From Streptomyces sp. WP-1 (GTDB lineage Bacteria > Actinomycetota > Actinomycetes > Streptomycetales > Streptomycetaceae): a stretch of DNA of 64,000 nucleotides. The DNA lies in NCBI RefSeq assembly GCF_030450125.1, contig NZ_CP123923.1, forward strand, positions 6,147,501 to 6,211,500, read 5' to 3'. Under the pieces are notes generated by a model. It was not told where the DNA came from, made no database searches, and worked only from the letters and a program-made list of their open reading frames with translations. The stretch's first letter is position 1; the number at the start of each line of letters is the position of its first letter. The position numbers were made by a program, and so were the translations under genes. Of the stretch, positions 33,309-37,720 are shown piece after piece.

Positions 33309-33320
33309 GACGGAACTTTG

Positions 33321-34382
33321 ATGCGAAGCAGCGGCAGCGGCAAGAGTGGCGGGCGCGGTAACCACCGCGGCGCCGGCAACAACCGGGACGAGCGCCAGGG
33401 GCAGGGCCGTCCCAGCAAGCCCCGCCCCGAGGAGCGCCGCTACGACGTGGGCTCCGGCGCGACCAAGGACGGCCCCAAGTCCGGGCGCGGCGGCGCGGCG
33501 CGCGGCGGCGCCAAGGGCGGCCCGCGGCGGCCCCAGCAGGGCGGCCGTACGGAGCCCTCGCGCTCGCGTGAGTACGAGACGCGGGCCGAGGAGCGCAACC
33601 GGGACCGGTACGCGGGCAAGAAGGACATCAAGCTGCCCAAGACCTTCCCGGGCGCCGAGCAGGAGGGCGAGCGGCTCCAGAAGGTGCTCGCGCGCGCGGG
33701 CTACGGCTCCCGGCGCGCCTGCGAGGAGCTGATCGAGCAGTGCCGCGTCGAGGTCAACGGCGAGATCGTCACCGAGCAGGGCAAGCGGGTCGACCCGGAG
33801 AAGGACGAGGTCAAGGTCGACGGCCTGACGGTCGCGACCCAGTCGTACCAGTTCTTCTCGCTGAACAAGCCCGCCGGTGTGGTCTCCACCATGGAGGACC
33901 CGGAGGGGCGCCAGTGCCTCGGCGACTACGTCACCAACCGTGAGACGCGGCTCTTCCACGTCGGCCGGCTGGACACCGAGACCGAGGGCGTCATCCTGCT
34001 CACCAACCACGGTGAGCTGGCGCACCGCCTGACCCACCCCAAGTACGGCGTGCAGAAGACGTACCTCGCGCACATCGTCGGCCCGATCCCGCGCGACCTC
34101 GGCAAGCGCCTGAAGGACGGCATCCAGCTGGAGGACGGCTACGCGCGCGCGGACCACTTCCGCGTGGTGGAGCAGACCGGCAAGAACTACATGGTCGAGG
34201 TGACCCTGCACGAGGGGCGCAAGCACATCGTGCGGCGGATGCTCGCGGAGGCCGGGTTCCCGGTCGACAAGCTGGTGCGGACCGCGTTCGGCCCGATCAC
34301 CCTGGGCGACCAGAAGTCCGGCTGGCTGCGGCGGCTGTCGAACACCGAGGTCGGCATGCTGATGAAGGAAGTCGAACTGTAG
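33321..34382 (+). CDS. pseudouridine synthase, RsuA/RluB family
   Basis: A 353-aa enzyme from ATG 33321, preceded directly by an in-frame TTG at 33318. Residues 1-110 are a Gly/Arg/Lys-rich basic tail. The S4 domain is at about 113-160 (RLQKVLARAGYGSRRACEEL). The catalytic domain has the essential Asp in VGRLDTETEGVILLTNHG, then HPKYGVQKTYLAHI and EGRKHIVRRMLAEAGFPV. The RluB group modifies 23S rRNA U2605, which is the likely target. It is commonly downstream of scpB in Gram-positive bacteria, as here. Confidence 0.92.
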   Translation: MRSSGSGKSGGRGNHRGAGNNRDERQGQGRPSKPRPEERRYDVGSGATKDGPKSGRGGAARGGAKGGPRRPQQGGRTEPSRSREYETRAEERNRDRYAGKKDIKLPKTFPGAEQEGERLQKVLARAGYGSRRACEELIEQCRVEVNGEIVTEQGKRVDPEKDEVKVDGLTVATQSYQFFSLNKPAGVVSTMEDPEGRQCLGDYVTNRETRLFHVGRLDTETEGVILLTNHGELAHRLTHPKYGVQKTYLAHIVGPIPRDLGKRLKDGIQLEDGYARADHFRVVEQTGKNYMVEVTLHEGRKHIVRRMLAEAGFPVDKLVRTAFGPITLGDQKSGWLRRLSNTEVGMLMKEVEL

Positions 34383-34401: not shown

Positions 34402-34430
34402 TTGCGTCGATCATCATCCCCCTTTATTGT
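34402..34430 (+). promoter_or_regulatory. promoter of the ADP-ribosylglycohydrolase operon
   Basis: TTGCGT (34402-34407) and TATTGT (34425-34430) are separated by 17 bp. The predicted start of transcription is near 34437, inside the palindrome, leaving AAGGGGG (34444-34450) nine nt before ATG 34460. Confidence 0.55.
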
Positions 34431-34456
34431 CACCGTGACGATAAAGGGGGATGATG
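34412..34456. promoter_or_regulatory. 45-bp near-perfect palindromic operator
   Basis: Centred on C34434, the 22-nt arms match at 21 positions; the only exception is T34428 against G34440. The core is TTATTGTCACCGTGACGATAA, flanked by CCCCC/GGGGG and CATCAT/ATGATG. It overlaps the -10 and the ribosome site of the next gene, so binding of a dimeric or tetrameric regulator would block transcription. It lies 29 bp after the pseudouridine synthase stop and could also act as a hairpin in read-through RNA. Confidence 0.8.
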
Positions 34457-34459
34457 CAC

Positions 34460-35467
34460 ATGTCCAAGCGGCCCGCGACCGGCTCGCTCCTCGGACTCGC
34501 GCTGGGGGACGCCCTCGGCTTCCCGACCGAGTTCACCAAGGTGCCCGAGATCCTGGCCAGGTTCGGGCCCTGGCGCGAGATGCCGCTCGCGCGGCGCGCC
34601 TTCGTCTCCGACGACACCCAGATGACCCTCGCCCTCGGCCGGGGGCTGCGCACCGCCATGGAGCGCGGCCGTCTCGCGCCGAAGCGGCTGGAGCGGCCGG
34701 TGCGCGAGGAGTTCGTGGACTGGTACCACTCGCCGGACAACGACCGGGCGCCCGGGAACACCTGCCTGACCGCCTGCCGGCTGCTGGAGGACGGGGGCCG
34801 GGCCTGGCAGGACGCCAGCCGGCTCGGTTCCAAGGGCTGCGGCGCCAATATGCGCGTCGCGCCGATCGGGCTCGCGCCCGGCCTGAGCGAGGAACAGCGG
34901 GCGGGCGCCGCCCAGTTGCAGTCCGGGCTCACGCACGGCCACCCCACCGCGCTGGCCGCGTCCGATCTCACCGCCCGCGCGGTCCACCTGCTGGCGCGGG
35001 GCACCGAACCGGGCGCACTCGTCGGGGAGTTGCGTCACTACGCCCTCGCGAACCGCACCCGGTACGACGAGACGTGGCTCGGCGATCTGTGGACCCGTTC
35101 CGAGGACCCCACGCCCGAGCACTTCGCGGCGCGCGGCTGGGACGAGTGCCTGGCCATCCTGGACCGGCTCCAGGAGGCGGTGCGCACCCATTCCCCGGAG
35201 GACGATCCGTGCGGGGCCACCGGGGAGGGCTGGATCGCCGAGGAGGCGTTCGCCACCGGGCTGCTGTGCTTCCTGCTCTTCCCCGACGAGCCGCTGACCG
35301 CCCTGCGGCGGGCCGCCTGCACCGCCGGTGACTCCGACTCCATCGCCTGCCTGACCGGCGCCTTCGCGGGCGCGTGGCTCGGTGCGGACGCCTGGCCGGC
35401 GGACTGGGCCGACCGGATCGAGTACCGGGAAGATCTGTTGGCGCTCGGCACACTCTGGGACGCTTAG
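34460..35467 (+). CDS. ADP-ribosylglycohydrolase (DraG family)
   Basis: A 335-aa all-helical hydrolase. ATG 34460 is chosen because AAGGGGG is nine nt upstream; ATG 34451 and 34454 touch it. The N-terminal GSLLGLALGDALGFPTEF, the metal-binding SDDTQMTLALGRGL, and the C-terminal metal site CTAGDSDSIACLTGAFAGA are all present, so the binuclear Mg site appears intact. Such enzymes remove ADP-ribose from protein (Arg) or other acceptors. It is followed 4 bp later by an RlaP-like nucleotidyltransferase. Control through the 45-bp palindrome is inferred. Confidence 0.9.
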   Translation: MSKRPATGSLLGLALGDALGFPTEFTKVPEILARFGPWREMPLARRAFVSDDTQMTLALGRGLRTAMERGRLAPKRLERPVREEFVDWYHSPDNDRAPGNTCLTACRLLEDGGRAWQDASRLGSKGCGANMRVAPIGLAPGLSEEQRAGAAQLQSGLTHGHPTALAASDLTARAVHLLARGTEPGALVGELRHYALANRTRYDETWLGDLWTRSEDPTPEHFAARGWDECLAILDRLQEAVRTHSPEDDPCGATGEGWIAEEAFATGLLCFLLFPDEPLTALRRAACTAGDSDSIACLTGAFAGAWLGADAWPADWADRIEYREDLLALGTLWDA

Positions 35468-35471
35468 GCCC

Positions 35472-36224
35472 ATGATCGACAACCTCGACATAGACCTCGC
35501 GCCCGTGGTCGCCGGACAGCCCGATCCCCTGCTGTTCGCCACCGTCTCCGGGGCCCATCTGTACGGCTTCCCCTCGCAGGACTCGGACGTGGACCTCAGA
35601 GGCGTCCATCTGCTGCCCGCCGCGGACCTCGTGGGCCTGCGCGAGCCGGAGGAGACCCGGTCGAAGACGTGGGTGCACCACGGAGTCGAGCTGGACCTCG
35701 TGACGCACGATCTGCGCAAGTTCGTACGGCTGATGCTGCGCCGCAACGGGTATGTGCTGGAGCAGCTGCTGTCGCCGCTGGTCGTGCGCACCACCGACGC
35801 GCACCGCGAGCTGTCCGCGCTCGCCCCGGACGTGATCACCAGCCATCACGCCCACCACTACCGGGGGTTCGCGGTCACCCAGTGGCGCCTGTTCGAGAAG
35901 ACCGCCGAACTCAAGCCGCTGCTCTACACGTTCCGCGTCCTGCTCACCGGCATCCATCTCATGCGCACCGGCGAGGTTCAGCCCCATCTGCCCACGCTGG
36001 TAAGGGAGTTGGACGCCCCCGCCTACATCCCCGACCTGATCGCCGCCAAGGCCGCCCAGGAACACGGCACCTTCCCCGGCCTCGACCGGCACCGCGTCGC
36101 CGATGACGTGGAACGCCTGCACACAGCCCTCGACGAGGCCCAGGCCGCGTCCTGGCTGCCGGACACGGCGACCGGCCACGAGGCGCTGCACGACTTCGTG
36201 GTACGGATGAGGCTGGGGAGCTGA
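35472..36224 (+). CDS. RlaP-like nucleotidyltransferase 1
   Basis: A 250-aa protein from ATG 35472, four bp after the glycohydrolase stop. VSGAHLYGFPSQDSDVDLRG near residue 27 is the polymerase-beta-type G-x9-DxD motif in the variant of PF10127 (RlaP, RNA-repair-associated polymerase-like family), with GA in place of GS. A later acid lies in GVELDLVTHDLRKFVRLML. The rest is helical. The family transfers nucleotides to RNA or protein and often neighbours RNA ligases, but the substrate here is unknown. It converges on a second, diverged family member at 36319-37017. Confidence 0.85.
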   Translation: MIDNLDIDLAPVVAGQPDPLLFATVSGAHLYGFPSQDSDVDLRGVHLLPAADLVGLREPEETRSKTWVHHGVELDLVTHDLRKFVRLMLRRNGYVLEQLLSPLVVRTTDAHRELSALAPDVITSHHAHHYRGFAVTQWRLFEKTAELKPLLYTFRVLLTGIHLMRTGEVQPHLPTLVRELDAPAYIPDLIAAKAAQEHGTFPGLDRHRVADDVERLHTALDEAQAASWLPDTATGHEALHDFVVRMRLGS

Positions 36225-36318
36225 GGAACGGGGCGGGCCCATTCCGGCCGGCCCGGCCTGGCCCTTTCGGCGTCCGCCCCCGAGCAGCCGTACCCCCCGC
36301 CCCCGAAGCCGGTCCGCC

Positions 36319-37017
36319 TCACCCCGGTCGTGGCGGCTCCGACGCCGAGTCACGGCGTGTGCGGAACAGGAAGTCCGCCACCCGGGCTCGGTCCGGTTCC
36401 GGGGGGAGTGGGGTGTGGCGCAGGGCGGTTTCCGTCTCCGTGGCCAGGCGGGTCATCCGGGATTCGACGGCCGTCCAGGGGACCTCGCCCCGTTTCACCG
36501 CCAGCAGGGGCTCGCGCTGGTCGCCCACGTCGAGGTGCAGCTCGCCGGTGCGCAGCAGTTCGCGGCAGGAGGCCAGCAGGCGCAGCAGATGCATGGCGTG
36601 CTTCCAGCGCGGGGCGCCCGTCGTGCGCACGTCGGCGTCCAGCTTCCTGCGCTGGCCGAGGGCGTAGCGGGTGAAGGTGTCGTACACCTTCACGGAGAGG
36701 AACGCCCCGCGCAGGGACAGCAGTTCGCGGCCGGTGTCGTCCAGGTGTTCCACCAGCGGGGAGTGCAGGCACTCCAGGATGTTCGGATTGCCGCGCAGCG
36801 CCAGCTCGCAGAACCGCTCCAGCTCCCAGGAGAACTGTTCCTCGCCCGGCCCCTCCACATGCGCCGGCGGCTTCTCGAACCGCCAGAACAGGGCGGTGGG
36901 CGCGAGATACACGCCCCGCCGGTCGGTGTCGCTCGCGTCCGTGGCCAGGCCGAAGGCCCGGGACCCCATGACGCAGGCGTAGATCGTGTGGTCGCGTACC
37001 AGGTCCTCGGGCTGCAT
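36319..37017 (-). CDS. RlaP-like nucleotidyltransferase 2
   Basis: A 232-aa protein from ATG 37017. ACVMGSRAFGLATDASDTD followed by RRGV near residue 15 is the G-S-x-DxD active-site motif of the same family as the facing gene, and here the GS is canonical. The third acid is probably in FSWELERFCELALRGNPN. The C-terminal part is helical with a basic stretch. TAGGCT lies six nt before the ATG, suggesting a leaderless promoter of its own 21 bp after the Rieske gene. Two diverged copies converging with a DraG gene suggest one functional module. Confidence 0.85.
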   Translation of the reverse strand: MQPEDLVRDHTIYACVMGSRAFGLATDASDTDRRGVYLAPTALFWRFEKPPAHVEGPGEEQFSWELERFCELALRGNPNILECLHSPLVEHLDDTGRELLSLRGAFLSVKVYDTFTRYALGQRRKLDADVRTTGAPRWKHAMHLLRLLASCRELLRTGELHLDVGDQREPLLAVKRGEVPWTAVESRMTRLATETETALRHTPLPPEPDRARVADFLFRTRRDSASEPPRPG

Positions 37018-37038: not shown

Positions 37039-37515
37039 TCAGCTCAGCTGGATGGAGTTTCCGTCGACCTTGATCGGGCGCTCGGCCAGCGGCTTCGTCG
37101 CCGGACCGTCGGCCACCGAACCGTCCTCGATCTTGAACCGGCTGCCGTGGCAGGGGCAGTCGATGGTGCCGTTCTGCACCCGGCTCACCGTGCAGCCCAT
37201 GTGCGTGCAGACCGCCGAGAACGCCTTGAACTGCCCCTTCACCGGCTGCGTCACCACGATCTTCTGCGCGTCGAAGACCTTGCCCCCGCCCTCGGGGATG
37301 TCACCCGTGCTCGCGAGCTTCTTCGCGTCCGCCTCCGGGGACGTACCCGTACCGGTCGGGGACGCCGAAGCCGCGGGGCTCGTCGGACCCGTCGGCGAGG
37401 GGCTGTCCGTGCCGTCGGCGGCCGCGCTCGTGTCGCTCTTGCCACCACCGCAGCCGGTCGCGAGCGCCGCCGCGCTCGTCGCGATCACCATGCGCCGCGT
37501 CGCGCCCTGGTTCAT
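37039..37515 (-). CDS. Rieske [2Fe-2S] protein, Tat-type lipoprotein
   Basis: A 158-aa exported protein. ATG 37515 has GGAG seven nt upstream. The signal [18 protein letters not shown] has the twin Arg of Tat export and ends in a lipobox-like ATGC (Ala at -3 is atypical), predicting Cys 22 lipidation. A Ser/Thr/Pro linker spans 25-65. The C-terminal Rieske domain carries CTHMGC and CPCHGS, giving two Cys and two His ligands. It is not beside cytochrome bc genes, so it is a stand-alone electron carrier of unknown partner. Confidence 0.9.
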
Positions 37516-37720
37516 GTCACCACTCCGTACACATGTCGGGATGCGGATACCGTTGCCGATGCCTGAGAGAAAGCGTGGAAACCGGGATGAACCGGACCGC
37601 ACGTATCGTCTCAGCGATCGGGCGCCGCGCGCCGTGCCCACGCGGGCTGACTAGGCTGGACGGGCGAGCACGACAACACCTGTCGGCACCTGTCAGCACT
37701 GGTTAGCGAGGAGCAGCACC

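What the first reader, a model, noticed from the sequence alone, without database searches (positions are those of the whole stretch)
34412..37017. Candidate nucleic-acid or protein ADP-ribose repair module: DraG hydrolase plus two facing RlaP-like nucleotidyltransferases
An ADP-ribosylglycohydrolase and an RlaP-like nucleotidyltransferase form a 4-bp-spaced operon, and a second diverged RlaP-like gene converges on it. Both have the DxD motif (QDSDVDLRG; DASDTDRRG) and the hydrolase keeps both metal motifs. RlaP proteins are known from RNA-repair neighbourhoods, where ADP-ribose chemistry also occurs (Tpt1/KptA and macro-domain pathways). A module that adds a nucleotide and removes ADP-ribose would be a coherent repair or modification switch. 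No ligase, RtcB or toxin is in the window, so it would be a minimal form.
Basis: partly seen in the sequence, partly recalled or inferred. Interest (0 to 1): 0.8.

Follow-up and report, generated by a model that had tools for sequence, protein, structure and literature searches.

The report
NAD-linked operon with RNA-repair nucleotidyltransferases
A Streptomyces gene cluster puts an ADP-ribose-removing enzyme next to two enzymes related to those of a bacterial RNA-repair system, apparently under a switch that senses NAD breakdown products, which suggests a link between NAD metabolism and RNA repair that can be tested.

Summary
The three genes are real and correctly placed: a DraG/ARH hydrolase, an RlaP-family nucleotidyltransferase (NT1) 4 bp downstream, and a second RlaP gene (NT2) converging on them. 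Two things were missed. (1) A 45-bp palindrome starts at 34412. In 37 of 48 Streptomyces genomes with full-length draG (61 examined), a Nudix-winged-helix NrtR-type regulator (nrtA) lies directly upstream of draG, sometimes after pnuC-nadR (NAD salvage), and an NrtR-like box usually precedes it. The window's strain lacks nrtA but keeps a box, of a changed type sharing a half-site with the site of a paralogue, nrtB. Where a box was found, its type follows nrtA without exception (85 of 85 versus 21 of 21). (2) NT1 and NT2 are, one to one, the closest relatives (50-52% and 48-50% identity) of the two nucleotidyltransferases behind Hen1 in Deinococcus RNA-repair operons. Hen1-Pnkp is encoded elsewhere in the window's genome. 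So the RNA-repair idea is partly right, but the module is neither minimal nor obligatory: NT1 is often lost, and draG-RlaP linkage was not seen in the 15 non-Streptomyces hits checked. Best reading: an NrtR-type, ADP-ribose/NAD-responsive operon joining ADP-ribose removal to RNA-end restoration. Regulation and relationship are well supported; substrates are inferred. New variant of a known kind.

The parts
34412..34456 (.). Palindrome, 22-nt arms around a NrtR-like box (core TATTGTC-N5-GACGATA at 34425-34443); proposed operator. The 3' arm holds the likely ribosome-binding site, so as RNA it would also form a hairpin over it.
34463..35467 (+). draG: ADP-ribosylglycohydrolase (ARH/DraG family, PF03747); in-frame alternative starts at 34451 and 34454
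35472..36224 (+). NT1: RlaP-family nucleotidyltransferase (PF10127), relative of the second NT (NTb) behind Hen1 in Deinococcus operons
36319..37017 (-). NT2: RlaP-family nucleotidyltransferase (PF10127), convergent; relative of the first NT (NTa) of those operons
33318..34382 (+). rluB-like pseudouridine synthase: upstream syntenic marker, not part of the module
37039..37641 (-). Rieske protein: downstream syntenic marker, not part of the module

Best explanation
The locus is a NAD/ADP-ribose-responsive stress operon of Streptomyces that carries RNA-end-repair enzymes. An NrtR-type repressor holds it off: in most relatives nrtA inside the operon, and in this strain most likely its paralogue nrtB encoded elsewhere. 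The repressor binds the palindrome at 34412-34456 and lets go when ADP-ribose (or a related NAD product) rises. DraG strips ADP-ribose from damaged or modified macromolecules, plausibly including ADP-ribosylated RNA ends made by Tpt1/KptA. NT1 and NT2 put back nucleotides on broken RNA ends for the Hen1-Pnkp machinery encoded elsewhere in the genome. In some relatives the same operon also refills NAD through PnuC and NadR. Shown by comparison: the operon, the regulator and box association, the operator switch, and the relationship of NT1 and NT2 to Hen1-operon genes. Inferred: the ligand, the NrtB takeover, the substrates of DraG and the NTs, and the joint role.
For: nrtA (NUDIX plus NrtR_WHD, PF21906 E 1.7e-15) lies directly upstream of draG in 37 of 48 full-length draG genomes; a nadR relative was in the stretch read in 20 of the 48, and pnuC (PF04973 E 8.6e-59), nadR, nrtA and draG follow one another in G042. 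Boxes of the TATAGTC-N5-GACTATT type precede nrtA or pnuC. In 124 draG loci the base after the right GAC is T or C in 85 of 85 nrtA+ loci with a box and G or A in 21 of 21 nrtA- loci with a box; 18 loci (15 nrtA+, 3 nrtA-) had no box within one mismatch. nrtA presence changed at least 7 times and the operator type at least 5 times on the draG tree; 3 independent supported pairs all agree. nrtB is the genome's only close NrtR relative (62% identity to nrtA); its upstream site TATCGTC-N5-GACGACTAT is in 20 of 20 genomes read and shares the TATCGTC/GACGATA half-site. NT1 matches Deinococcus NTb at 50-52%, NT2 matches NTa at 48-50%, cross-matches 25-29%; these NTs sit directly behind Hen1 on three Deinococcus plasmids, with full Pnkp in two. 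Two adjacent, remoter NTs also follow Pnkp in Asticcacaulis and Hymenobacter. Hen1 is in 58 of 61 Streptomyces genomes, with Pnkp next to it here. In G035, which lacks this draG, a different PF03747 gene (29% identical) lies divergently beside the NT2-NT1 pair. PMC11833690 (abstract and passages): an ARH-like S. coelicolor enzyme reverses phosphate-end RNA ADP-ribosylation made by the Tpt1/KptA-like SCO3953.
Against: No binding, expression or enzyme data were made here. NT1 is absent or broken in 22 of 48 full-length draG genomes and both NTs are absent at the locus in 6. Seven of the 13 genomes without full-length draG have RlaP matches, so draG and the NTs are separable. Two nrtA- genomes (G009, G026) have no box and a third (G014) only a two-mismatch one. 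Hen1 is nearly universal in these Streptomyces whether or not RlaP is present, so genus-level co-occurrence gives little support. Only 5 of 14 plasmid Hen1 loci read have the NT pair. The ARH enzyme tested in PMC11833690 is a different DraG-like protein, and ARH enzymes there were inactive on guanosine- and 2'-OH-linked RNA ADP-ribose. [quoted passage not shown] the ligand may differ. Only three supported independent pairs back the operator switch (sign test 0.25).
Confidence: 0.5

Rival explanations
1. Pure NAD homeostasis: the operon only salvages NAD and disposes of ADP-ribose; NT1 and NT2 have been recruited to act on a nucleotide-like small molecule, not RNA.
For: pnuC-nadR-nrtA-draG-NT1 order in relatives; operator association.
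Against: NT1 and NT2 each keep their own one-to-one relationship with the two NTs behind Hen1 in Deinococcus; NT2 is not in the operon and often persists where NT1 is gone (16 of 22); NadR, where present, already supplies an adenylyltransferase.
Confidence: 0.2
2. Anti-conflict (antiviral) ARG system: DraG removes ADP-ribose that phage enzymes put on host molecules, induced by ADP-ribose through a Nudix regulator; the NTs repair phage- or toxin-cut RNA.
For: PMC9503650 section 3.8 (read) predicts ARG systems with Nudix-HTH regulators and this induction logic.
Against: No PADLOC hit for the three proteins; the locus sits at a fixed place, with rluB and/or Rieske beside it in 42 of 48 genomes, the other 6 having short stretches read; no rhodanese-phosphatase or chaperone domain among the ten window proteins scanned with Pfam.
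Confidence: 0.15
3. The palindrome is not an NrtR operator but an RNA element: a hairpin masking the draG ribosome-binding site, or the terminator of rluB.
For: -34.7 kcal/mol fold; arms of 16 nt or more in 17 of 21 nrtA- sites; on 16 related sequences 4 pairs with two-sided changes and 96.5% of cells paired.
Against: The same dyad core lies before nrtA or pnuC in relatives, with shorter arms (mean 13 versus 19), and its half-site type follows the regulator's presence. Both roles may hold.
Confidence: 0.15
4. No functional link: draG, NT1 and NT2 are merely neighbours that drift apart.
For: Frequent loss of NT1 and survival of NTs without draG.
Against: 4-bp spacing, 78 of 80 adjacency, and a second, independent PF03747 gene beside the NT pair in G035.
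Confidence: 0.1

Closest known systems
NrtR family (Nudix-related regulators of NAD metabolism; e.g. MsNrtR, PMC6800001, passages seen)
   Same: Nudix domain plus NrtR winged helix, palindromic site beside its own gene and NAD genes (pnuC, nadR in some relatives).
   Different: Precedes an ADP-ribosyl hydrolase and a RlaP gene; Nudix motif intact; in this strain the regulator gene is not at the locus; site TATNGTC-N5-GACNATA differs from the mycobacterial site given in that paper.
Hen1-Pnkp bacterial RNA repair operons with a RlaP pair (Deinococcus plasmids)
   Same: The same two NT types, adjacent.
   Different: In Streptomyces the pair is usually convergent, away from Hen1-Pnkp, and next to draG.
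ARG-centric systems with Nudix-HTH regulators (PMC9503650, section 3.8 read)
   Same: ADP-ribosylglycohydrolase with a Nudix-HTH regulator.
   Different: No phosphatase or chaperone partner seen; the word RlaP does not occur in that paper's main text.
D. radiodurans ligase-PARG-kinase/phosphatase operon (DRB0100-0098, discussed in PMC11833690, passages seen)
   Same: An ADP-ribosyl hydrolase joined to RNA/DNA end-repair enzymes.
   Different: PARG macrodomain rather than DraG; ligase and kinase rather than nucleotidyltransferases.

Membership tests
DraG/ARH ADP-ribosylglycohydrolase (PF03747) | Profile match and metal-binding motifs | tested here: met
   E 5.7e-64, 217 bits against cut-off 26.2; DDTQ and GDSDS conserved in at least 98% of 48 relatives; best solved chain by sequence is DraG 2woc. 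That these are the metal motifs is recalled.
DraG/ARH ADP-ribosylglycohydrolase (PF03747) | Equivalog of dinitrogenase-reductase DraG or Tri1 | tested here: not met
   78.6 and 63.4 bits against cut-offs of 337.05 and 490
RlaP (PF10127) | Profile match and Pol-beta acidic residues, both genes | tested here: met
   177.7 and 113.5 bits against cut-off 23; conserved acids in 26 of 26 and 40 of 40
RlaP (PF10127) | Linkage to an RNA ligase or RNA-repair operon | tested here: inconclusive
   Not linked in the Streptomyces loci read; the closest full-length relatives outside Actinomycetota in the plasmid collection stand behind Hen1; Hen1-Pnkp elsewhere in this genome
NrtR regulon | Nudix plus NrtR winged helix regulator adjacent, with a palindromic box | tested here: met
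   Adjacent regulator in 37 of 48 relatives counting the window; in the window strain box only, regulator paralogue elsewhere
NrtR regulon | Regulator binds the box and is released by ADP-ribose | not testable with these tools
   Needs binding assays
ARG-centric conflict system | Phosphatase and/or chaperone partners, variable neighbourhood | tested here: not met
   Fixed neighbours; no PADLOC hit for the three proteins; Pfam of ten window proteins

The most novel reading that the evidence does not exclude
RNA repair in Streptomyces is wired to NAD state: ADP-ribose released by DraG from RNA ends (caps left by Tpt1/KptA or by ADP-ribosylating toxins) is the inducer that frees an NrtR-type repressor, which then turns on more DraG, the nucleotidyltransferase that rebuilds the RNA end, and (in some relatives) NAD refilling; the repressor's intact Nudix site then destroys the signal and resets the switch. 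Related boxes before the SPFH operon that converges on Pnkp-Hen1 would bring both loci under one regulator.
Probability: 0.2. Interest if true: 0.85.

Novelty: new variant of a known kind. Interest (0 to 1): 0.6.

Why it matters
As far as I know (recalled), RlaP nucleotidyltransferases have no tested substrate, and the DraG-like SCO1766 is listed as uncharacterised (PMC5087735, passages); the function of RNA ADP-ribosylation in bacteria is open. An operon that puts both kinds of enzyme behind a probable NAD/ADP-ribose-sensing regulator gives a concrete test bed in laboratory Streptomyces. The repeated loss of the local regulator with a matching change of operator is also a clean natural case of one paralogous repressor perhaps taking over another's target.

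Tried and rejected
Rejected: 'minimal module with no RNA-repair partner' (Hen1-Pnkp found). My first counter-idea, that the locus had nothing to do with RNA repair (notebook), was dropped after the Deinococcus operons. PADLOC gave nothing for the three proteins. No relative of NT1 in viral contigs by short peptides; phage records hold remote relatives (96 records, at most 31% identity in the 20 listed). No solved structure matches NT1 or NT2 by sequence at E up to 1. Embleya and Nonomuraea carry NT1 relatives with no draG, nrtA, nadR, Hen1 or Pnkp found in the 7 kb on either side; Nonomuraea has Hen1 and Pnkp elsewhere on the same record. The one-mismatch box near Pnkp-Hen1 was followed to other species: two tandem related boxes, each within two mismatches, occur in 6 of 6 loci that have the SPFH gene, of 21 Hen1 loci read including the window genome's own; the link to Hen1-Pnkp is only that the operons converge. 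A structure prediction for NT1 was not finished at the polls, so no fold comparison was made. The original NrtR and RlaP papers are not held; what I say of them is recalled or taken from the papers cited.

Searches behind statements on print: (9 of 10 allowed); by titles and starts of abstracts none listed a paper on a NrtR-DraG-RlaP operon, and the library lacks most subscription journals. SCO1766 is listed in PMC5087735 (passages) as one of seven uncharacterised DraG homologues. SCO1767, annotated as a DNA hydrolase, rises (log2 1.92 and 1.81) with recA, lexA and dnaE2 in topA-altered S. coelicolor (PMC6637917, table passages). That SCO1766 and SCO1767 are the draG and nrtA of this locus is recalled, not tested: S. 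coelicolor was not among the named loci read. PMC6800001 was listed for SCO1767, but its main text does not hold the word.
Full report
Observation. The window lies in a 7.6 Mb, one-contig genome; the 80 best named NT1 loci are 79 Streptomyces and one record named Kitasatospora aureofaciens. The three genes are as described: draG 34463-35467 (+), NT1 35472-36224 (+) and NT2 36319-37017 (-). Both NTs match PF10127 (RlaP) well over the cut-off, and DraG matches PF03747 at 5.7e-64. They are the genome's only RlaP matches. Between rluB and draG lies a palindrome, 34412-34456, with 22-nt arms, whose 19-bp core TATTGTC-ACCGT-GACGATA occurs once without mismatch in the genome.

The locus in relatives. 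draG was found in 50 of 61 Streptomyces genomes, 48 of them full-length. Reading these 48, rluB and/or Rieske lie beside it in 42; the other 6 were read only as stretches of 4 kb or less. The order is rluB, [pnuC, nadR], [nrtA], draG, NT1, then NT2 and Rieske on the other strand. nrtA, a Nudix plus NrtR winged-helix protein, lies directly upstream of draG in 37 of 48, and a nadR relative was in the stretch read in 20 of 48. In G042, pnuC (PF04973), nadR (AAA_28 kinase and a weak CTP_transf_like match), nrtA and draG follow one another, with a box TATAGTC-ACAGT-GACTATT before pnuC. So this is an NAD-salvage and ADP-ribose operon in some relatives, and box-draG-NT1 in the window strain.

The operator switch. 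Combining the 61-genome set with the 80 best NT1 loci of genome contigs gave 124 usable draG loci (121 different sequences; of 126 candidates, 48 and 78, two fell out on length; some strains may be in both sets). A box within one mismatch was found in 106. The base after the right-hand GAC is T or C in 85 of 85 loci with nrtA, and G or A in 21 of 21 without. Without a box: 15 loci with nrtA and 3 without. On the draG tree nrtA presence changed at least 7 times and the operator type at least 5; three supported independent pairs agree, too few for significance. The window genome has no nrtA but one close paralogue, nrtB (62% identity), with the same two domains. Upstream of nrtB is a site TATCGTC-N5-GACGACTAT in 20 of 20 genomes read; its half-site TATCGTC is the reverse complement of GACGATA, the half-site of the nrtA-less draG operators. 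I infer that nrtB took over where nrtA was lost. The Nudix motif is intact in 99 of 100 nrtA and 20 of 20 nrtB, so these regulators might also hydrolyse their ligand.

A possible second layer. Arms reach 16 nt or more in 17 of 21 nrtA-less sites, and in the window the 3' arm includes the likely ribosome-binding site; the strand folds to -34.7 kcal/mol. On 16 of these sequences 96.5% of cells are standard pairs, with 4 pairs changed on both sides. These are close relatives, and the same symmetry is expected of a DNA operator, so this does not decide between operator and hairpin.

The nucleotidyltransferases. In the plasmid collection NT1 has full-length matches at 50-53% identity on three Deinococcus plasmids, each as the second of two adjacent NT genes directly behind Hen1. 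A full Pnkp follows in D. ficus (after one more gene) and D. gobiensis; D. taeanensis keeps only a C-terminal Pnkp remnant there. NT1 pairs with NTb (50-52%) and NT2 with NTa (48-50%), cross-matches being 25-29%. Two adjacent, more remote NTs follow Pnkp in Asticcacaulis and Hymenobacter. Of 19 plasmid records with Hen1 I read 14; 5 have the pair, and a translated search found no NT relative in the other 9. Hen1 is in 58 of 61 Streptomyces genomes, and in the window genome Pnkp (PF16542 E 1.2e-174) adjoins it. Tpt1/KptA is present too.

How tight is the association? Of 48 full-length draG genomes: NT1 and NT2 intact 25, NT2 alone intact 13, NT1 broken or partial with NT2 intact 3, NT1 intact with NT2 partial 1, both absent at the locus 6. 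Of 13 genomes without full-length draG, 7 have RlaP matches. In the 396-genome phylum sample RlaP was found in 25 genomes, 15 outside the genus; none of those 15 hits has a draG relative in its flanks of up to 1.5 kb, and one has Pnkp directly beside it. One independent pairing: G035 lacks this draG but has another PF03747 gene (29% identical) divergent from its NT2-NT1 pair.

Mechanism. PMC11833690 (abstract and passages) reports that an ARH-like S. coelicolor enzyme, SCO5809, reverses ADP-ribosylation of RNA phosphate ends made by the Tpt1/KptA-like SCO3953, though ARH enzymes did not act on guanosine- or 2'-OH-linked ADP-ribose; it also describes a D. radiodurans operon joining PARG to a ligase and a kinase-phosphatase. 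PMC7824862 (passage) states the prediction that RlaP enzymes restore lost nucleotides before ligation. PMC6800001 (passages) shows that ADP-ribose releases an NrtR from DNA. Put together, the likeliest reading is an ADP-ribose-inducible operon that removes ADP-ribose adducts, helps restore RNA ends and, in some relatives, refills NAD. The substrates are not shown.

Judgement. My own estimates: regulatory assignment (comparative) about 0.8; NT1/NT2 as the Hen1-operon pair about 0.85; the joint function about 0.4; overall 0.5.

Noticed in passing
L203 (G000:C1:2082000-2099000), 2879-2931: Two tandem dyads of the type T[A/T]TCGTC-N5-GACGA (first one TGTCGTC here) precede an SPFH gene and an unassigned gene that by eye looks like an NAD-kinase relative (no Pfam hit) and converges on Pnkp-Hen1; such pairs are in 6 of 6 loci read that have the SPFH gene.
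   Followed up: partly
G000:C1:2278709-2279461 (L066 8710-9462): nrtB, a second NrtR-type gene with an almost invariant upstream site in 20 of 20 genomes read; its wider regulon is unknown.
   Followed up: partly
G000:C1:5895748-5901005 (L068): Four ADP-ribosylglycohydrolase matches lie in a row within 5.3 kb, possibly the ARG-centric type described in PMC9503650.
   Followed up: no
L204 5445-7998 (G035): A different PF03747 gene lies divergently beside a tandem NT2-NT1 pair in a genome that lacks the draG of this locus.
   Followed up: partly
L173 (G084): In an actinobacterial genome of another class a RlaP gene follows directly on a Pnkp match.
   Followed up: no
L035 (G049): A decaying copy: NT1 is split into two pieces in different frames.
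   Followed up: no
L185 2539-3794 (Deinococcus taeanensis plasmid): A small AAA kinase and a Thg1-like gene lie upstream of Hen1-NTa-NTb where Pnkp is only a remnant.
   Followed up: no
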